Shown piece by piece: positions 1,791 through 47,225 of a stretch of 50,887 nucleotides of DNA. Numbering within the stretch: the stretch's first letter is position 1; each line of letters begins with the position of its first letter. Source of the stretch: Rhodospirillales bacterium (GTDB taxonomy: Bacteria > Pseudomonadota > Alphaproteobacteria > Bin95); the NCBI GenBank assembly GCA_008081395.1, contig VMCJ01000062.1:1-50887 (forward strand), in the 5' to 3' direction. The notes beneath the pieces are model-generated. The model made no database searches and was not told the DNA's origin. It saw nothing but the letters and a program-made list of their open reading frames with translations. The position numbers and the translations under genes are program-made.

Positions 1791-3074
1791 ATGCGCACCT
1801 ATCTGAAAAAATCTAGCCAAAGAGAGGGCTTCGACCGACCAGCCGTCGAAGCTGCTGTCAGCAAGATGTTATCTGATATTCGAGAAAATGGTGACGATGC
1901 AATCCAGAGGTATGCTCGCGATCTTGATAATTGGAAAAGTTCAGAATTTCGTATGTCAGAAGACCGCATTCGCCAAGTTGAACGCATGCTGCCGGAAACC
2001 TTCAAGGAAGATATTAAATTTGCATTACAGCAAGTTCAGGACTTTGCGAAAGCTCAACGAGATACAATGGCAGAGCTCAACATTGAACTTCGGCCTGGTG
2101 CCCATATGGGGCATCGGCACATTCCAATAAAAGTAGCAGGTTGCTATACGCCAGGCGGCAAATACCCTCTAGTAGCGGGTTCAATTATGTCTGCAGGGGT
2201 GGCCGCAGTTGCCGGTGTTGGAACTATAGTTGGCTGCGCTCCACCCAAAGATTCAGACGGCGTCTATCCACAGACACTCTACGCCTTCCACGCAGCTGGA
2301 GCTCACGAAATCTTTGCTATAGGTGGCGTACAAGCCCTCGCAGCAATGGCATACGGGCTAGTAGGTATGCCACCCTCAGACTTAATTATTGGACCAGGCA
2401 ATCCTTATGTTGCTGAGGCAAAACGACAACTTTTTGGTGTATGTGGCATTGATCAGCTCGCGGGGCCTACTGAAACACTAATAATCGCAGACGATAGCGT
2501 CCCTGCATCGCTTGTTGCTACGGACCTTCTAGGCCAAGCAGAGCATGGGCCAGACAGTCCTTGCTGGCTCATAACTACGTCGCGCCGACTCGCCGAAGAA
2601 GTTTTAAGGGAAATTGAAACACAGCTAAAAACTCTCCCCACCCGAGAGGTCGCCCAAAAAGCTTGGCGTGATTATGGTGAGGTTGTGATTGTTGAAAGTA
2701 AAGAAGAAGCTGTTGAATTGGCGGATGAGTACGCGTCCGAGCACTTACAAGTAATGACTTCAGACGACGAATATTACCTTGCCAATCTTTCCAACTACGG
2801 CAGTCTTTTTGTAGGTGAAGCAACCACTGTTGCTTACGGCGACAAGGGAGTGGGAACAAACCATATCCTACCAACTGGTCGGGCTGCCCGTTATACGGGT
2901 GGGCTATGGGTCGGTAAATTTTTAAAAACTGTGACCTGGCAGCGACTAACTCCGGATGCCAGTCGGCAAATTGCTCCTGTTATCAGTAGAATCTCGGAGA
3001 GCGAGGGGATGCTGGCTCACGCAATTACCGCAGATGTTCGATATGCTAAGTATGCGCCTAAAAATGAGACTTAG
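1791..3074 (+). CDS. Histidinol dehydrogenase-family protein, HpsN-like (candidate sulfopropanediol 3-dehydrogenase)
   Basis: HisD fold motifs (AGCYTPGGKYPL, GPGNPYVAEAKR, GPTE, AEHGPDS). VGCAPPKDSDGVYPQTLYAFHAAGAHEIFAIGGVQALAAMAYG is typical of the HpsN-like branch. There are no his genes nearby. Confidence 0.8.
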   Translation: MRTYLKKSSQREGFDRPAVEAAVSKMLSDIRENGDDAIQRYARDLDNWKSSEFRMSEDRIRQVERMLPETFKEDIKFALQQVQDFAKAQRDTMAELNIELRPGAHMGHRHIPIKVAGCYTPGGKYPLVAGSIMSAGVAAVAGVGTIVGCAPPKDSDGVYPQTLYAFHAAGAHEIFAIGGVQALAAMAYGLVGMPPSDLIIGPGNPYVAEAKRQLFGVCGIDQLAGPTETLIIADDSVPASLVATDLLGQAEHGPDSPCWLITTSRRLAEEVLREIETQLKTLPTREVAQKAWRDYGEVVIVESKEEAVELADEYASEHLQVMTSDDEYYLANLSNYGSLFVGEATTVAYGDKGVGTNHILPTGRAARYTGGLWVGKFLKTVTWQRLTPDASRQIAPVISRISESEGMLAHAITADVRYAKYAPKNET

Positions 3075-3109: not shown

Positions 3110-3727
3110 TCATAGGGGCAACATCCAAATCGCAAACAGCGGGTCATTGCTCGACTTCATCGCGTGAATAATATTGGGCCTGTTATAGATCAATCCTCCA
3201 GGCCCAGGAGATTGCCATTCTCCGTTATTTTGTCTCCAGCACCCATCACTGAGCGCTATGTAAACCTCCTCTGGCGGATGTTGATGATTGGGATAAACAG
3301 TATTGGGCGCTAACAAACTTACCCCTATTCGGATGTCAGTTCGATATTCCAATCCCATATCACCCACTATAACGGCATTTGCGTGAGACTTAAGCCAATT
3401 TGGATCATTAGAGTGTCGATCCGATCGTGTCTGCCAGGAAAGTTTTGGAGTTAATACCTCCAAGGCTTCTGCTAGCCTACCTACTGGCCCAGACTTGGCT
3501 GTTTTAATAGCTTTATCCAACCAGGCTGTTACTGGAACTTCATGGGATGACAAAGCCCCTTTGTAGGCGCCAATATTTTTGAGCCTCTCATATACGAGAC
3601 CGGTTGCTGACCTAATTTTTTCGTCAGGTTTTCTTTTAAAAATTGATATTTTTAGCTCATTCAAAAAAAACTCAAGATCATCATTTCGAGGCATAATTTT
3701 TCTCAATTCATTATTAATCTGGAGCAT
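3110..3727 (-). CDS. dddQ: DddQ-like cupin DMSP lyase (dimethylsulfoniopropionate lyase family)
   Basis: C-terminal cupin YPNHQHPPEEVYIAL...GGLIYNRPNIIHAMKS...PLFAIWMLPL. Metal/active-site spacing Y-x2-H-x-H-x3-E-x-Y-x31-H. Confidence 0.8.
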   Translation of the reverse strand: MLQINNELRKIMPRNDDLEFFLNELKISIFKRKPDEKIRSATGLVYERLKNIGAYKGALSSHEVPVTAWLDKAIKTAKSGPVGRLAEALEVLTPKLSWQTRSDRHSNDPNWLKSHANAVIVGDMGLEYRTDIRIGVSLLAPNTVYPNHQHPPEEVYIALSDGCWRQNNGEWQSPGPGGLIYNRPNIIHAMKSSNDPLFAIWMLPL

Positions 3728-7302: not shown

Positions 7303-8394
7303 TCATTCAGCAAGCAAGAAGGGGGCACTCGATTCTATTGCTACCTTACGAACTTCTTCAATGAGAGTGTCTGCAATTGGTATACCATCTGCCGAACGAG
7401 TTGCTGTAGACCGTACCTCTGCATCACCTGCAACCTGTACAGGGTTTTCTGGATCTGCCGGAGGGGTTGCGTGAAGCATATCAATCATACGGTCTAAATC
7501 GGCTTGAAACTCTCCATCGGCACGGACCTTGGAAGGATCTATTGCCAAGAAGAAATGGCCGACATTTGTCTTCGTCCGCACTGGCTTGCCATCTGGACCC
7601 GGTCCATCAGACCAAGAGCCCGAGAGAGTTGCGCACAATATTTCGACCATAGTGGCAAGCCCATAACCTTTATGGCTACCTCGCTCTCTATCGCCACCTA
7701 AAGGGGTGAGACGACGCGCTTCAAATGCTGCTGCACCATCGGTTTCCATTTGGCCTTCACTATTTAGAGCCCAACCTTCGGGAATAGCTTTTCCTAGTCT
7801 TCGAGCAATGTTCAATTTTCCGACAGCTACAGTGGTGGTCGCCATATCAAGACTAAATGGTGGATTGCGCTCTGCAGGGGCTGCGAAGGCAATTGGGTTC
7901 GTGCCGAGTATAGGGTCGCGACCAAATGTTGGAACCATGGCTGGAGTTGGAGCGTTGGTCATCGCCATTCCAACAATACCCTCCTCAGCCGCCATTCTAC
8001 TGTAATAACCCGCAGCACCAAAATGATTGGAATTCCTGACGGAAACGACAGCCACGCCCATTGTTCGGGCCTTTTCCATTGCAAGCTTCATTGCCATTAC
8101 CGACGGAGGATGGCCCAGGCTACGGTCAGCATCGATTAAAGCAGCCGCAGGTTTTTCTCTAACGACTCGGATATCAGGGGTGTCCTTTATCATGCCACGA
8201 CCACGCCTCTGATGGTAACCTGGTAACATGCCAAGACCATGGCTATCGACACCCGAGAGGTCGGTTGCAACCATTACCTCTACAGTCGTAGCTATATTTT
8301 CAGATGTCATACCCCATGCCTGAAAGACTGCTTCAAGCTGAGCGCGAACAACACTTGCTGGAATATTGGTCACTGTTGCCATTCGCTTATTCAT
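7303..8394 (-). CDS. Ldh family (malate/L-lactate/ureidoglycolate-type) oxidoreductase
   Basis: SGVDSHGLGMLPGYH, RNSNHFGAAGYY, TNPIAFAAPA, GSHKGYGLATMVEIL. Confidence 0.92.
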   Translation of the reverse strand: MNKRMATVTNIPASVVRAQLEAVFQAWGMTSENIATTVEVMVATDLSGVDSHGLGMLPGYHQRRGRGMIKDTPDIRVVREKPAAALIDADRSLGHPPSVMAMKLAMEKARTMGVAVVSVRNSNHFGAAGYYSRMAAEEGIVGMAMTNAPTPAMVPTFGRDPILGTNPIAFAAPAERNPPFSLDMATTTVAVGKLNIARRLGKAIPEGWALNSEGQMETDGAAAFEARRLTPLGGDRERGSHKGYGLATMVEILCATLSGSWSDGPGPDGKPVRTKTNVGHFFLAIDPSKVRADGEFQADLDRMIDMLHATPPADPENPVQVAGDAEVRSTATRSADGIPIADTLIEEVRKVAIESSAPFLLAE

Positions 8395-19333: not shown

Positions 19334-19783
19334 TTAAGATGATTTTTTAGCTAAAATCTTTTCAAAAACATCGAGAGTTTCGTTGCTCACGTGGTGTTCA
19401 ATGCCCTCTGCATCGATAGCTGCTGTATCTGGCGACACACCTATTGCTATGAGGAAACCAAGGACAATTTCGTGCCTTTTCCTTGAGCGCACTGCAAGTG
19501 CAGCCCCTTTTTCTGTAAGGAAAATTGATCGATAAGGACGGGTCTGAACGAAGCCTTCCCGTGAGAGCCTTGCAAGGGTTTTATTCACTGTTGCATGGCT
19601 AACACCGAATCGTTCGGCCAGATCAACAGCACGTGCCTCTCCTTCTTCAGCAAGGAGATCAGCTATCAGCTCAACATAATCTTCAGCAACCTCAGTTTGT
19701 CGCGCTTTGCGTAAACGATCAAAGCCAGCAGCCTGACTACTCACATCTTGCAAACGACTTTTAGCGGCATTTTGGTCGGTCAT
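19334..19783 (-). CDS. mntR: MntR family manganese-responsive transcriptional regulator (DtxR family)
   Basis: wHTH DLAERFGVSHATVNKTLARLSREGFV, RHEIVLGFL, DAEGIEHHVSNETLDVF. Divergent from a metal ABC operon. Confidence 0.9.
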   Translation of the reverse strand: MTDQNAAKSRLQDVSSQAAGFDRLRKARQTEVAEDYVELIADLLAEEGEARAVDLAERFGVSHATVNKTLARLSREGFVQTRPYRSIFLTEKGAALAVRSRKRHEIVLGFLIAIGVSPDTAAIDAEGIEHHVSNETLDVFEKILAKKSS

Positions 19784-19847
19784 GGTTTCCCCTCAATAAA
19801 ACACGTCTAAACCTCAAAAACCTCATTAGCAAGCACGAGAACTATTT

Positions 19848-19861
19848 TTAGCCTTGGCTAA
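19848..19861. promoter_or_regulatory. Candidate MntR operator: perfect dyad TTAGCC-TT-GGCTAA
   Basis: Inverted repeat with 6-bp arms and 2-bp centre in the mntR/metal-ABC divergent intergenic region. Confidence 0.55.
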
Positions 19862-19957
19862 CAAATTATATATAGATATATTATTTACTATAAAGCAAAG
19901 ACTTGAAACATTGGCCGAGAAAAATATACTAGGATTACTAGCGTCGGGAATCGTCGG

Positions 19958-20935
19958 ATGCATCCAGGCATCTTCACAGTCTTAAGGTTGGCACGATTGT
20001 TCTTAATCGGTTTTTTTGCTGCCACTTCCCCGGTGTTCGCGGCGGAGAGACCCGTTATTCTTACAACTATTGCACAGATAGGAGAGCCGCTAGGCCGTAT
20101 TTTTTCGGGTTGTGCGAGGGTCGAAACACTTCTGGGAACAGGGATAGATCCACATCTATATAGGCTAAATAGAACAGATGTTGCCAAAGCCCTAGAAGCA
20201 GATGTGATAGTGGCTAACGGTTTAAATCTTGAAGCTCAAATGCAATCTCTGTTTGAGCGCTTATCTGCCACAAGACCGGTAATTTTTGCCGCGGAGCTCT
20301 TATCCGAAATTCATATTATTCGGCCAGATGGTCGCTCAGCCGATCCTCACATTTGGATGGATCCTAATTTATGGGGCGCTGTTTTAGGAAAAACTTCTGA
20401 TGAATTGGTAAAAATATGGCCAAGGTGCAAACCAACGGTCGCGAACAATAAAGCTATTGTAATCGCTGAAATTGAAGCGGTGAATCAGTACGGAAAGTCG
20501 CGTGTCGCCAGCATTCCTGAACAAGCTCGCATACTTATTACAGCGCATGACGCATTTGGTTATTTTGGGCGCAGGTATGATCTAACTGTTTTAAGCGTTC
20601 AGGGACTCTCCACTGAGAGTGAAGCTGGAATAGCTCATATCCGTGATTTAGTTTCCATCATAGCTGACCGAAAAGTTGGGGCGGTGTTTGTCGAAACATC
20701 TGCACCAGAACGGTCAGTTGACGCTGTTATAGAGGGAGCCCGTGCGTTAGGCGCCGCCGTAGAAAAAGGAAGTCCCTTGTTCTCTGATGCAATGGGCAGC
20801 TCTAACACCTATGAAGGTACTTATGTTGGGATGATAGATCATAACATAACAACTATTGTGCGGGGCCTAGGTGGTGAAGCACCAATGACTGGCATGCAGA
20901 AGCGTCTTGCTGTTCCTCCCAGGGGGGAGAGTTAA
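19958..20935 (+). CDS. Metal (Mn/Zn) ABC transporter substrate-binding protein
   Basis: Signal peptide; metal-ligand motifs [38 protein letters not shown]. TroA/ZnuA cluster A-I fold. Confidence 0.92.
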
Positions 20936-20939
20936 TAAG

Positions 20940-21740
20940 ATGAGCCCAGAGATCAGAGCCTTAATTCAAGGAGAAGAGCTTCATGCCCCTCTGGATAAGC
21001 AATCTCCTCTTGATGTTTCAGGCCTTACAGTTGCCTATCGACGAACACCTGCCGTCTGGAATGTAGACTTCAAAGCAGTACCGGGCTCTTTGACGGCTAT
21101 CTTAGGCCCAAACGGAGCCGGTAAATCTTCGTTCTTAAAGGGAGCTCTTGGACTTGTACCTACCCTTGAGGGACGCATTGGAGCCTTTGGCTTGCCAATT
21201 AACAAAAGCCGGCGACGCATTGCATATGTGCCACAACGGGAAAGCGTTGATTGGGAATTCCCAGCTACGGCCCTCGATGTAGTCACCATGGGGTTGTACC
21301 GAAGTATTGGCTGGTTTCGTCCAATCAGACGTTATCATAAAGAGGCAGCCCTTGAAGCATTGGCCCAACTGGGCATGGCCGACTTCGCCAGTCGTCAAAT
21401 TGGTCAGCTCTCAGGTGGGCAACAGCAACGTGTTTTTCTCGCCCGCGCCCTCGCTCAGGACGCCGATTTATATCTAATGGATGAGCCTTTAGCCGGAGTA
21501 GATGCGGCAACCGAGCGAACTATCGTTACCCTACTGCGCCACCTAGCATCCTCAGGAAAAACGGCATTAGTCGTTCATCATGATCTGTCTACAGTGAAAG
21601 AATATTTTGACCAGGCTCTACTTTTAAATGTTCGCCGCATTGCCTCTGGATCTGTTGATGAAGCCATAACTGAAGATACACTTCAACGCGCCTATGGGGG
21701 GCGGTTAGCGGCACCGCAACTCCGAGCTGTGCTTAGCTGA
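20940..21740 (+). CDS. Metal ABC transporter ATP-binding protein
   Basis: Walker [10 protein letters not shown], signature [15 protein letters not shown], Walker B DLYLMDEP. Start set at ATG 20940. Confidence 0.95.
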
Positions 21741-21746
21741 AGTATT

Positions 21747-22931
21747 ATGCTTGAAAGTTTCATCGGTGCATTGTTGCTCGAGGGCGGGTATAACAGCGTT
21801 CTTGTAATGGTAGGGCTTGGATTACTTGGAGCTGCGGCTGGTCCGGTTGGGACTTTTATGATCATCAAGGGCCGACCATTATTGGCTGATGCAGTAGCTC
21901 ACGCGACTCTTCCTGGTATCGCTGCTGGCTTTTTACTTTCCCTTTTTTTAACAGGGGACGGAAGGAACCCGATCTATCTTCTAGTTGGGGCAACTATTAC
22001 TGGGATCACCGCAGCTGGGGCCATGCATCTTCTAAAAGATGGTATTCGAATTGGCGAAGACGCAGCAACAGCAGCTACCCTCAGCGTTTCTTTTGGCGCC
22101 GGCGTGGTACTTCTGAGCTTTATCCAAAATTTACCTACAGCGGGACAGGCAGGATTAAATGCCTATCTCCTAGGCCAAGCAGCTACCATGACCCAAGGAG
22201 AGGCGTGGCTTGTTTTAGCTGTTGGGGCAACGACATTACTGATCCTCTTCTTAGTATTCAAAGAATTAACCATTTCAGCGTTTGATCCTATTGGCGCTAA
22301 AGCACTCGGCCTCCCTGTACGTTTACTCGACCTGCTAACAACTGCCCTCATGCTCCTAATAGTGGCGTCAGGTCTCAGAGCTGTTGGCCTGGTTCTAATC
22401 TTAGCCCTTCTGGTTACACCTGCTGCTGCAGCACGATTCTGGACAGATAATATTACGCGCATGACTGCTATCTCTGCTCTCCTTGGAGGTTTGGGAGCAT
22501 ATTTAGGTGGCGCTTTATCAACGGCCATTTCTGGCATACCAACTGGCGCTCTAATAGTCGCGATAATGAGTTCTGTTTTTGGTTTTAGTCTTCTCTTTGC
22601 ACCCAAAGGAGGCGCCATCGCGGTTGCTATGCGTAAGCATCGACTTACCAAACACATTCAGCGCCTTCGTGTACTGGGCAGGATTGCCGATGGAGTAGCG
22701 CTAGCTGAGCTTATTAAAGTTGCACGACATTATGGCTGGGCCGATACCAACGGCAGGCCAACAATGTCAGGTGAAATAGCTGCCAAATCCTGGGCGAAGG
22801 AAGAAAAACTTCGATCATTATATCTTACTGACAGACCCGAGGAGGCAAATCGAATAACCCTCAGCCTTATGCCACTTCATCGTCTGATACCAAGAGATGT
22901 CCTAGCGGACTTAGAACGTCGGTCCTCATGA
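21747..22931 (+). CDS. Metal ABC transporter permease with about 100-aa C-terminal extension
   Basis: ABC-3 permease (PLLADAVAHATLPGIAAGFLL, GLRAVGLVLILALLVTPAAAARFW), then hydrophilic tail MRKHRLTKH...DLERRSS. Confidence 0.92.
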   Translation: MLESFIGALLLEGGYNSVLVMVGLGLLGAAAGPVGTFMIIKGRPLLADAVAHATLPGIAAGFLLSLFLTGDGRNPIYLLVGATITGITAAGAMHLLKDGIRIGEDAATAATLSVSFGAGVVLLSFIQNLPTAGQAGLNAYLLGQAATMTQGEAWLVLAVGATTLLILFLVFKELTISAFDPIGAKALGLPVRLLDLLTTALMLLIVASGLRAVGLVLILALLVTPAAAARFWTDNITRMTAISALLGGLGAYLGGALSTAISGIPTGALIVAIMSSVFGFSLLFAPKGGAIAVAMRKHRLTKHIQRLRVLGRIADGVALAELIKVARHYGWADTNGRPTMSGEIAAKSWAKEEKLRSLYLTDRPEEANRITLSLMPLHRLIPRDVLADLERRSS

Positions 22932-23833
22932 CTTTCCTGCAAATTGATTTGCCAGCGATGACACTTGCCATTCTAGCTGGACTAACTGCTGCCCTAGTCG
23001 GCAACTTACTAATTTTACGAAGGCAAGCTTTGATGGGAGATGCTCTATCCCATATGGTGTTACCGGGCATTGTCGGTGGTTATGTCATTAGTGGCCACCC
23101 AAAAAGCTGGGCTATAGTTGGTGGCGCGTTATTAGCGGGCCTTCTGGGCGCCGGCTTGATTTCCTTAATTCAACGACTTGGTCGATTAGATGCAGCAACA
23201 GCAATGGGAGTGGTCTTGACCACCATGTTTGCTGCTGGCGTACTTTTAATTGAAGTAATCAATATTTCTGGGATCCATCTCGACATCGAGCATGCATTAT
23301 ATGGGAGCCTCGAGAGTGTGATTTGGCTTTACCCGGTAGGTTGGAAAGATATCTTTAACCCTGCTGGTTGGGCTGACCTACCCCGGGAAATACCCTTTAT
23401 TGCAGGAACTTTTTTTACCTTAGCAACCGCCTTTTTTATCACTGCGAAAGAGATAAGGTTAGTAACATTTGATCCCAGCTTTAGTGCCACTCTAGGTATA
23501 CCTTTCTGGCTTACGGAATTATTAATTAACTGCGCTGTCGCTATTGCAGTAGTAGCTGCATTTGATGCCGTTGGCTCAATCTTAGTGATATCGATGCTCA
23601 TTTGCCCGACTGCAACAGCGAGACTAATCACCAATCGCTTTAACCTTCAGATAGGGGTCAGCCTTTTTATTGCGGCTTTCAGCGCTCTACTTGGGTATGT
23701 CTTCGCGGTATGGGGAGCTCCATATCTTGGTTCTCCAGGGGCAGTAAACGCGGCGGGCGGTATCGCGTGTGTGGCAGGTACCATCTTGGTTTCAACATCT
23801 ATTTTGCATGTACTGTTGCAGAAAAGAGCATAA
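22928..23833 (+). CDS. Metal ABC transporter permease
   Basis: ABC-3 family (LILRRQALMGDALSHMVLPGIVGGYV, DAVGSILVISMLICPTATARL). ATGA overlap. Confidence 0.93.
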   Translation: MTFLQIDLPAMTLAILAGLTAALVGNLLILRRQALMGDALSHMVLPGIVGGYVISGHPKSWAIVGGALLAGLLGAGLISLIQRLGRLDAATAMGVVLTTMFAAGVLLIEVINISGIHLDIEHALYGSLESVIWLYPVGWKDIFNPAGWADLPREIPFIAGTFFTLATAFFITAKEIRLVTFDPSFSATLGIPFWLTELLINCAVAIAVVAAFDAVGSILVISMLICPTATARLITNRFNLQIGVSLFIAAFSALLGYVFAVWGAPYLGSPGAVNAAGGIACVAGTILVSTSILHVLLQKRA

Positions 23834-43738: not shown

Positions 43739-45001
43739 TCAGGTCAATCGGCGTCTTAACTCCGGATACAAGAAGTTTGCAATTAAGTAACAAAAAAATC
43801 CGATACTCGTCACAGTAATGACGGCCACAGCCGCGTCTCCGACCGTTTCTGCTATCCACCCAACATTCAAAATACCGATAGGCCCACAGCCAATACACAT
43901 TGCCAAAACGCCCATCACTCGCACCCTCATGTTCGAAGGTGCTCTCGCTAAAATGAGGCCTGACTGCATTGATCCAAAGCCCGAAAGCCCAAACCCTGCA
44001 ATGAAAAGAAAACCACCTGCCATGAAAATTAAAGCTGTCCCTCCAAGCAAACCCATCCAAGCGAATAAACCCATGCAAACGATATATGTACCGGCGCCAA
44101 TCGCAAAAATGCGGGCAAGTTGAGAAGGCCGCGCGAAGGCCGCAACAAGGGTAGCGCCGCAAAGGGCACCTAAACCCTCCAAACTTGTTAATGTTCCGGT
44201 TTGCAATGCACTCATACCAAAATTTTGACGACCAATAACTGGAAGCATTGAGACACAAGCAAAACCGAAGAGGTTTAAAATTATTGTCACTACCAGAACC
44301 GCCTGTATGACCCTTTCCTGACGAATATATCGCAGGCCTGATGTCAAACTTCTTAAGACGGGTTCTCGTCCAATTCCTTCACTTCTTATCCCTCGCCGCA
44401 CCCCAGCAATTAAGCAAGCGCCTATAAGGCACACACATGCGCCGAATCCGAATGGTCCTTGAATGCCCACAAAATCTAAAAGAGCACCTCCAATAAATGC
44501 TCCCGACGCTCGGGTAATGCTGTTAGTGGCACTTTCTAAGCCCATAGCTCTTGGTAAGCGCAGAGGCCCCGCAATATCTCCAACCATGGTTCTACGTACT
44601 GGAAGCTCAAAAGACCAAAAAACACCAGAGAGGGTCACGCCTATGGCAACGTGCCAAAGCTCCAATTTTTCAAGAACAGCAAGGCCAGCTAACGAGAAAT
44701 ACATCGCGGCCATCGACACCATCAAGCTAACCAACAGAACCCGACGATCGAAACGTTCTGCCCACGCCCCACAGAAGGCACCTAGAAGAAACATAGGAAG
44801 CATGCGAAGAAAAAGCATCTGCGCTGTAATCAAGGCCGATCCCGTGATTTGGACTGTGTAGTAGCCAACTACCAACACATCCATCCACCGCATGACGCCT
44901 ACCATACCGCCAGCAAGCCATACTCGCATAAAATCTCTATCGATGAAGAGAGATGATGGCTTTTCGAGCGGCTCAGCTTGTGCTGATATCACTTCCTGCA
45001 A
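43739..45001 (-). CDS. MFS transporter
   Basis: RVWLAGGMVGVMRWMDVLVVGYYTVQITGSALITAQMLFLRMLP, CGAWAERFDRRVLLVSL; about 12 TM. Confidence 0.9.
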   Translation of the reverse strand: MQEVISAQAEPLEKPSSLFIDRDFMRVWLAGGMVGVMRWMDVLVVGYYTVQITGSALITAQMLFLRMLPMFLLGAFCGAWAERFDRRVLLVSLMVSMAAMYFSLAGLAVLEKLELWHVAIGVTLSGVFWSFELPVRRTMVGDIAGPLRLPRAMGLESATNSITRASGAFIGGALLDFVGIQGPFGFGACVCLIGACLIAGVRRGIRSEGIGREPVLRSLTSGLRYIRQERVIQAVLVVTIILNLFGFACVSMLPVIGRQNFGMSALQTGTLTSLEGLGALCGATLVAAFARPSQLARIFAIGAGTYIVCMGLFAWMGLLGGTALIFMAGGFLFIAGFGLSGFGSMQSGLILARAPSNMRVRVMGVLAMCIGCGPIGILNVGWIAETVGDAAVAVITVTSIGFFCYLIANFLYPELRRRLT

Positions 45002-45033
45002 TTTATTCCTTTCCCGTTTTTACGAGACACACA

Positions 45034-46119
45034 ATGCAAATTATAGAACACGCTCGACTTCGTGATGCCATCACAGCGATTTGTGCTGCAGGTGGAAGCG
45101 AAGCCAAAGAGGCTCGCATAGTTGCTGACAACTTAGTAGATGCCAATATGGCCGGACATGATAGCCATGGCGTTGGAATGATTCCTACTTATATCACCAA
45201 CCTTCTTAACGGAGGACTAAAGCCAAACGAGCACGCTGAGATTGTTGTTGATAACGGAGCAGTCATAGTCATCGATGGCCGTTCCGGTTATGGCCAGGTT
45301 ATTGGGCAAGAGGCGATGGCCATTGGCATTGATAGGGCAAAGAAATTTGGGGCTGCTTGTGTCGGTCTAAGAAATGCCCATCACATAGGAAGAATCGGAC
45401 AATGGGGCGAACAATGCGCTGCTGCCGGTTTTGTATCGACACATCATGTGAATGTTGTCGGCCATAAAGCTTCAGTCGCTCCTTTTGGTGGCTCTGATGC
45501 CCGTTACATTACCAACCCATACTGTGCTGTCATGCCAGCCACGGACAAGAATCCACCAACGGTACTTGATTTCGCAACTAGCTTCGTTGCTATGGGCAAA
45601 ATACGTGTTGCCAGAAATAAGGGTGAGCCTGCACCCGAGGGAGCATTGATAGACACAACCGGACAGCCAAGTCGTGACCCCAACATCATGTACACTGACC
45701 CTATCGGAGGTGCCCTTAACCCTTTTGGTCAGCACAAAGGTTACGGACTAGCTCTTCTTAATGAGATATTGCCATCGGCCATGACGGGCACCGTCGGGTG
45801 TAGACCAGAGACACGGTTTGACCCACCAAAGACCATTAACAATATGCTTTCCATTATTATTGACCCCAGCCGTCTTGTCTCCCGTGAACGGTTTAATGAG
45901 GAAACTGATGCGGCCATTTCTAACGTTAAAGGTTCTCCAGCAGCTGACCCATCAAAGCCGGTAGTTGTGCCAGGTGACCCAGAACGGATCTCTTGGAAGA
46001 AAAGAGACTCGGAAGGAGTACCGGTGGATGACGAAACCTGGCGAGAAATAACAGCATCAGCTGTATCAGTTGGTATGCGTGCTGAAGATCTTGACGTCAT
46101 CGCAGGCATTAAGGCCTGA
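45034..46119 (+). CDS. Ldh family oxidoreductase (paralog 1)
   Basis: GHDSHGVGMIPTYI, RNAHHIGRIGQWGEQCA, HKGYGLALLNEIL. Start at ATG 45034, not 44953. Confidence 0.93.
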   Translation: MQIIEHARLRDAITAICAAGGSEAKEARIVADNLVDANMAGHDSHGVGMIPTYITNLLNGGLKPNEHAEIVVDNGAVIVIDGRSGYGQVIGQEAMAIGIDRAKKFGAACVGLRNAHHIGRIGQWGEQCAAAGFVSTHHVNVVGHKASVAPFGGSDARYITNPYCAVMPATDKNPPTVLDFATSFVAMGKIRVARNKGEPAPEGALIDTTGQPSRDPNIMYTDPIGGALNPFGQHKGYGLALLNEILPSAMTGTVGCRPETRFDPPKTINNMLSIIIDPSRLVSRERFNEETDAAISNVKGSPAADPSKPVVVPGDPERISWKKRDSEGVPVDDETWREITASAVSVGMRAEDLDVIAGIKA

Positions 46120-46133
46120 GGAGAATATATAAA

Positions 46134-47225
46134 ATGCCAACTATTCAAGCTGATAAACTCGAAGCCGTATGTCGCCTAATTACAACTGCTCGCGGGTCTG
46201 CGGAAAAGGAAGCAGATCAGGTTGCACGAAATCTGGTCGTCGCAAATTTAAAGGGCCATGACAGTCACGGTGTGGGGATGTTGCCTCGTTACATCAAGTC
46301 GTCCTTTGTGGGAGAACTTAATATCAATTCTCATGCAGAAATTGTCACTGATCATGGGCTAATCGTACAGATTGATGGGAATCAAGGTTACGGCCAGGTT
46401 ATTGGTGAAGAGGCCATGGAGATTGGCATTGAACGCGCCAAAGCTTTTGGGCTCTGCATCCTAACAATTCGGAATTCCTATCACTTATGCAGAATAGGAG
46501 CCTGGGGTGAACAATGCGCAGAACATGGTTTAGTCTCCATGCATCATGTAAACGGATATGGCCATCCAGGTTACGTTGCTCCATTCAGGGGATCCGATGC
46601 GAGGATTTCAACTAACCCCTACTGCGTTGTCTTGCCAAAAACCGCTAATAACCCTCCGACTGTGCTAGACTTTGCAACCTCGGCTGTTGCTCAAGGCAAA
46701 ATTAGAGTTGCCAAAAATAAGGGTGTTGAAGCGCCAGAGGGCGCTCTGATTAACCATAAAGGTCAGCCAACTCGAGACCCGATGGTGCTGTTTCAAGAAC
46801 CAATGGGTGCTCTTGCTGCTGTTGGTGGAGAAGCGGCAGGCCATAAAGGTTACGGGCTTGCTTTTATCAATGAACTTTTTGGCGGAGTTCTATCTGGTGG
46901 TCATACATGCCGGCCAGAGACGCATCATGAACATGACGTTATCATCAATGGGATGTTATCAATCATTATTGACCCTGAGAAAATGACTGATCGTGAGAGC
47001 TTTGAGGCTGAAATTGATGCTGCAATTGCCCACGTAACCGCATCTCCAGCAGCTGACCCTGAAAAACCTGTCCTTGTCCCAGGCGACCCAGAGCGCCAGA
47101 CTTTAGCTGAGAGACGTTCTGAGGGTGTGCCTATAGATGACGAAACTTGGCGCGAAATCCTTGCAACCGGTCAAAGTGTCGGTATCGAGCCCGATGAACT
47201 GCGAAGTCTAGCAGCTGTGAATTAA
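46134..47225 (+). CDS. Ldh family oxidoreductase (paralog 2)
   Basis: GHDSHGVGMLPRYI, RNSYHLCRIGAWGEQCA, HKGYGLAFINELF. Confidence 0.93.
   Translation: MPTIQADKLEAVCRLITTARGSAEKEADQVARNLVVANLKGHDSHGVGMLPRYIKSSFVGELNINSHAEIVTDHGLIVQIDGNQGYGQVIGEEAMEIGIERAKAFGLCILTIRNSYHLCRIGAWGEQCAEHGLVSMHHVNGYGHPGYVAPFRGSDARISTNPYCVVLPKTANNPPTVLDFATSAVAQGKIRVAKNKGVEAPEGALINHKGQPTRDPMVLFQEPMGALAAVGGEAAGHKGYGLAFINELFGGVLSGGHTCRPETHHEHDVIINGMLSIIIDPEKMTDRESFEAEIDAAIAHVTASPAADPEKPVLVPGDPERQTLAERRSEGVPIDDETWREILATGQSVGIEPDELRSLAAVN

What the first reader, a model, noticed from the sequence alone, without database searches (positions are those of the whole stretch)
3110..3727. DddQ-type DMSP lyase with all six cupin active-site residues at the expected spacing
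Seen: residues Y145, H148, H150, E154, Y156 and H188 of the 205-aa ORF (YPNHQHPPEEVY ... NIIHAM). Knowledge, from memory: characterised DddQ of Ruegeria uses Tyr120/His123/His125/Glu129/Tyr131/His163. Every offset here is a constant +25, so the metal/catalytic frame is intact. Inference: this organism may cleave DMSP to DMS plus acrylate. The N-terminal ~100 aa look divergent, so it could be a new clade of the DddL/Q/W/K cupin superfamily.
Basis: partly seen in the sequence, partly recalled or inferred. Interest (0 to 1): 0.75.

Follow-up and report, generated by a model that had tools for sequence, protein, structure and literature searches.

The report
Cupin lyase-like protein, not proven DddQ
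The gene encodes a real metal-binding enzyme of the 'DMSP lyase' cupin superfamily with an intact active site, but it belongs to a separate branch, common in soil and plant bacteria, whose natural substrate is unknown, so calling it a DMS-producing DddQ enzyme is not justified.

Summary
A 205-codon ORF on the MINUS strand (3110-3727; likely start Met12, 3694) carries Y145, H148, H150, E154, Y156 and H188 at exactly the spacing of DddQ Y120/H123/H125/E129/Y131/H163. It matches Pfam DMSP_lyase (148 bits, cut-off 27). An AlphaFold model (pLDDT 94) matches solved DddQ structures best over its whole length, including the helical N-terminal half. All six residues are invariant in 54 aligned relatives. 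Identity to solved DddQ is about 23% in the cupin half. In the tree the three solved DddQs form their own supported group. The window's branch replaces several conserved DddQ positions. [quoted passage not shown] there the gene lies in a betaine-transport and demethylation-like cluster. The window's genome has an AcuI homologue but no BCCT or OpuAC-type importer, and the gene has no ddd/acu neighbours. Best reading: a functional metal-dependent cupin lyase of the DLL superfamily, probably acting by beta-elimination on a DMSP-like carboxylate, with DMSP possible but unproven. It is a new member of a known superfamily. The six-residue frame does not identify the substrate.

The parts
3110..3727 (-). 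ORF of the DMSP-lyase-like cupin (205 aa as listed; 194 aa from Met12, 3110-3694, more likely)
3434..3694 (-). N-terminal helical half (residues 12-98; helices 16-30, 36-48, 65-78, 83-95), as in DddQ
3116..3385 (-). Cupin barrel (residues 115-204)
3260..3295 (-). Cupin motif 1, YPNHQHPPEEVY (Y145, H148, H150, E154, Y156): metal ligands and putative catalytic tyrosines
3164..3166 (-). H188, cupin motif 2 metal ligand (DddQ H163, DddK H96)
3125..3127 (-). W201, invariant in the clade, aligned with DddK W110, which stacks on the sulfonium of DMSP/DMSOP

Best explanation
A functional, single-cupin, metal-dependent lyase of the DMSP-lyase-like (DLL, PF16867) superfamily, in a branch distinct from DddQ. 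Shown: fold (predicted), family, intact 3-His/1-Glu frame plus two tyrosines, purifying selection, separate clade. Inferred: a divalent metal (Fe/Mn-type) is held by H148, H150, E154 and H188. It binds the carboxylate of a small substrate, and Y156 (DddK Y64, DddQ Y131) takes an alpha-proton, expelling a leaving group from the beta-carbon. W201 suggests the leaving group may be a sulfonium or ammonium cation. The natural substrate is more likely another compound of that type than DMSP itself; DMSP or DMSOP cleavage may be a side activity.
For: PF16867 148 bits. Six residues invariant in 54 sequences, W201 too. Model pLDDT 94, and the six best PDB fold matches are all DddQ over about 200 columns, TM 0.59-0.67. 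DddQ forms a separate SH-aLRT 99 group. Clade-specific residues at 101, 115, 117, 127, 129, 131, 171 and 182. Relatives on 258 plasmid records, mostly Rhizobium and Sinorhizobium. Rhizobium context: ProVWX transporter, NADH:flavin oxidoreductase, ETF, formaldehyde-detoxification genes. A gene with the same frame in R. johnstonii 3841, described as without known DMSP links. No BCCT or OpuAC importer in the own genome. DddK/DddQ chemistry from PMC10686828 and PMC4437653.
Against: No substrate is identified. Contexts of relatives are heterogeneous: folA-hflK in Mesorhizobium, TRAP-like transporters, betaine clusters, so none defines the reaction. I could not measure which clade-specific residues line the pocket. 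AcuI is present in the genome, which would suit an acrylate-releasing lyase. All known cupin DMSP lyases cleave DMSP, so the prior for some DMSP activity is not small.
Confidence: 0.55

Rival explanations
1. It is a genuine DMSP (or DMSOP) lyase of a new clade: the organism takes up DMSP, cleaves it to DMS (or DMSO) plus acrylate, and removes the acrylate with AcuI.
For: Complete six-residue frame, including the two tyrosines said to be specific to cupin DMSP lyases. DddQ-like fold. W201 aligned with DddK W110. AcuI homologue of 420 bits.
Against: Outside the DddQ clade, about 23% identity. The E-value to solved DddQ is 5e-4 or worse by single sequence, far from the 1e-30 used for DddQ homologues in PMC5395565. 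No ddd/acu neighbours. No BCCT or OpuAC importer. Relatives with the same frame in rhizobia not known for DMSP cleavage.
Confidence: 0.27
2. It has a different cupin chemistry (isomerase, dioxygenase or decarboxylase) or a ligand-binding/regulatory role, and the lyase resemblance is only ancestral.
For: Very varied contexts of relatives. Many general cupins match the barrel structurally. The second copy in R. etli has lost the metal ligands and so cannot be a lyase of this type.
Against: Both catalytic tyrosines and the Trp aligned with the cation-stacking Trp of DddK are invariant in the clade, which a change of chemistry would probably relax.
Confidence: 0.15

Closest known systems
DddQ DMSP lyase (Ruegeria lacuscaerulensis 4LA2, R. 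pomeroyi 5CU1, Roseovarius nubinhibens 4B29)
   Same: Pfam family, fold over the full length, order and spacing of Y/H/H/E/Y/H
   Different: About 23% identity in the cupin half, separate clade, replaced positions at 101, 115, 117, 127, 129, 131, 171, 182
Uncharacterised 'dimethylsulfoniopropionate lyase' proteins of Rhizobium, Sinorhizobium and Mesorhizobium (e.g. WP_011649282.1)
   Same: Same broad clade, roughly 37-43% identity, same invariant residues
   Different: Rhizobium copies sit in a betaine-transport/demethylation-like cluster; the window's copy does not
DddK of SAR11 (6A53)
   Same: H56/H58/E62/Y64/H96 and W110 align with H148/H150/E154/Y156/H188 and W201
   Different: DddK lacks the N-terminal helical half and the first Tyr (Leu instead). 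Its carboxylate-binding Tyr122 lies beyond the point where the window protein ends
DddL, DddW, DddY
   Same: Cupin metal motif (PMC4437653); DddY gives a weak structural match
   Different: DddL and DddW sequences could not be fetched for a tree; DddY matches only around motif 1 by sequence

Membership tests
PF16867 DMSP_lyase (DLL cupin superfamily) | Profile score above the curated cut-off | tested here: met
   148 bits vs 27
PF16867 DMSP_lyase (DLL cupin superfamily) | Cupin metal motif HxHxxxE ... H | tested here: met
   H148, H150, E154, H188; invariant in 54 relatives
DddQ | Tyr120/His123/His125/Glu129/Tyr131/His163 at the same spacing | tested here: met
   numbering confirmed in PMC4437653
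DddQ | Fold: N-terminal helices plus cupin barrel | tested here: met
   pLDDT 94; best PDB matches all DddQ
DddQ | Groups with characterised DddQ in a tree / passes E < 1e-30 used in PMC5395565 | tested here: not met
   Separate clade; best single-sequence E 5e-4
DddQ | Shares further positions conserved among the solved DddQs (F/Y115, F127, T/S129, H182) | tested here: not met
   H, E, R and N instead
DddQ | Produces DMS and acrylate from DMSP | not testable with these tools
   Needs an enzyme assay
DMSP cleavage pathway | Importer of BCCT or OpuAC type in the genome | tested here: not met
   None in own genome, 96% complete; controls positive; both absent also from same-genus G010 and G011
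DMSP cleavage pathway | Acrylate disposal gene (AcuI) | tested here: met
   420 bits vs 297, but unlinked and present in non-DMSP bacteria too
DMSP cleavage pathway | Linkage to other ddd/acu/dmd genes | tested here: not met
   Neighbours are an HDH paralogue, SDR, Zn-ADH, amidohydrolase
DddL / DddW | Groups with DddL or DddW in a tree | not tested
   No sequences of these could be fetched

The most novel reading that the evidence does not exclude
The branch holding this protein, annotated 'DMSP lyase' across rhizobia and other Alphaproteobacteria, performs a so far undescribed elimination on another betaine-type or beta-substituted carboxylate, and DMSP cleavage by DddQ is an offshoot of that older activity.
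Probability: 0.4. Interest if true: 0.6.

Novelty: new member of a known kind. Interest (0 to 1): 0.35.

Why it matters
This case shows that the complete DddQ active-site frame and the Pfam name occur in a clade widespread in soil and plant bacteria, including Rhizobium johnstonii 3841. Frame-only or Pfam-only calls could therefore over-count DMSP lyases. It also offers a tractable way to ask what the ancestral substrate of cupin DMSP lyases was: assay the Rhizobium copy inside its betaine cluster.

Tried and rejected
(1) Neighbour-based function: the gene sits between an HDH-family gene and an SDR only in the window and in L026. In other genus members the HDH-SRAP pair stays together without it, and the cupin lies elsewhere, so the neighbours say little. 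(2) Organosulfonate idea: the HDH neighbour scores far better to HpsN than to HisD but has Leu where HpsN needs His126, so I did not build on it. (3) Relaxed or decaying gene: the cupin is 65% identical to L026 while some neighbours are 85-97%, but dN/dS is about 0.11 and another neighbour (SRAP) diverges as much. (4) One shared context across relatives: not found. (5) New N-terminal fold: rejected. My home-made gene calling in high-GC loci was unreliable and I do not rely on it for counts.

Full report
Observation. The ORF 3110-3727 is real and lies on the minus strand. DddQ of R. lacuscaerulensis has Y120, H123, H125, E129, Y131 and H163 in the PDB 4LA2 sequence and in PMC4437653, so the spacing is identical. 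The absolute offset of 25 depends on the start: orthologues and the profile match begin at Met12, giving a 194-aa protein that starts at 3694.

Family. P0001 matches PF16867 DMSP_lyase with 148 bits against a cut-off of 27; NCBIfam has no equivalog hit above its cut-off. Single-sequence matches to solved structures are weak (RnDddQII E 5e-4, DddK 0.004, R. lacuscaerulensis DddQ 0.05). A 54-row profile raises DddQ to 4e-14. The AlphaFold model has mean pLDDT 94. Its six best PDB matches are all DddQ, over 198-204 columns, TM 0.59-0.67. The N-terminal half is therefore the known DddQ helical half with diverged sequence.

Relatives. The closest is 65% identical, in an alphaproteobacterial MAG (L026). 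Among plasmids, 258 records match, mostly Rhizobium and Sinorhizobium, often annotated as DMSP lyase. In an even draw of 289 Alphaproteobacteria, 23 carry a match at E <= 1e-20. In 54 aligned members, W98, G122, G135, Y145, H148, H150, P152, E154, Y156, N182, H188, M190 and W201 never vary.

Placement. A quick maximum-likelihood tree of 104 rows puts the three solved DddQs in one group (SH-aLRT 99), with the window inside a separate group of 91 rows (support 81). Caveats: the DddQ rows are partial, the branches are long, and the sampling was drawn from relatives of P0001, so intermediates may be missing. Identity to DddQ is about 23% in the cupin half. Positions 101, 115, 117, 127, 129, 131, 171 and 182 are conserved in the window's branch (R, H, N, E, R, D, W, N) and differ from all three DddQs. 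Whether they line the pocket was not tested.

Does the frame imply DMSP cleavage? Rhizobium johnstonii 3841 plasmid NC_008378.1 carries a gene identical to L137:5992-6597, whose product has YPDHVHAPEEVY...HAM. [quoted passage not shown] PMC10686828 used R. leguminosarum J391 as a host that 'cannot catabolize DMSOP'; I did not verify the parentage of J391. The gene may simply be silent under the conditions used, so this weakens rather than excludes lyase activity. In Rhizobium the gene lies next to ProVWX betaine transport genes, a P5C-reductase-like gene, an NADH:flavin oxidoreductase, ETF genes, a second cupin and formaldehyde-detoxification genes, which suggests (inference) breakdown of an N-methylated betaine. 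In R. etli the second cupin has lost the metal ligands. Other relatives have quite different surroundings, so context does not fix the substrate.

Own genome. AcuI/YhdH is present (420 bits) in an unrelated context. BCCT and OpuAC families, the two importer families reported for DMSP (PMC10030565), are absent from a 96%-complete draft, and also from G010 and G011 of the genus, though G012 has both and G013 has OpuAC. The neighbours of the gene are not ddd, acu or dmd genes, and their adjacency is not conserved in the genus beyond L026.

Mechanism. By analogy with DddK/DddQ (PMC10686828, PMC4437653): metal held by three His and one Glu, substrate carboxylate on the metal, a motif-1 Tyr as base, expulsion of the beta-leaving group. 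Predicted fold, residues and selection are shown; metal, chemistry and substrate are inferred.

Verdict. A real, intact, DMSP-lyase-like cupin in a branch of unknown substrate; not a demonstrated DddQ. Moderate interest, mainly as a warning against frame-based annotation and as a pointer to an untested clade.

Noticed in passing
window 1791-3074 (+): Histidinol-dehydrogenase-family paralogue that scores 470 bits to sulfopropanediol 3-dehydrogenase HpsN vs 248 to HisD, but has Leu127 where HpsN has its diagnostic His126. A separate HisD-like gene exists in the genome. Substrate unknown.
   Followed up: partly
L106:7992-11110 (Rhizobium etli IE4771); L137 (R. johnstonii): Two cupin copies flank the ETF genes. 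In R. etli the second (DLL2) has lost metal ligands (H-Q-R-F ... F), a likely pseudoenzyme partner in a betaine-demethylation-like cluster.
   Followed up: partly
L065, L067, L090, L100: In Mesorhizobium-type genomes the cupin lies between what look by eye like dihydrofolate reductase and HflK genes, a housekeeping neighbourhood with no link to sulfur or betaine use.
   Followed up: no
L027:9092-12060: In this same-genus genome the cupin overlaps by 8 bases the start of a polysaccharide-deacetylase-like gene, followed by genes that look by eye like a maleate-isomerase-like protein and an FAD monooxygenase: a possible operon with a different context.
   Followed up: no
G000:C29:13691-14899: The genome's HisD-like gene match contains one in-frame TGA: assembly error or broken gene.
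   Followed up: no
window 44953-47225 and 7303-8394: Two tandem malate/L-lactate dehydrogenase-type ORFs (by eye), plus a third at 7303-8394 that resembles L-sulfolactate dehydrogenase at 265 bits, below that family's cut-off of 500.
   Followed up: no
window 19334-23833: Apparent metal ABC transporter set (binding protein, ATPase, two permeases) next to a DtxR/MntR-like regulator, judged by eye from the translations.
   Followed up: no
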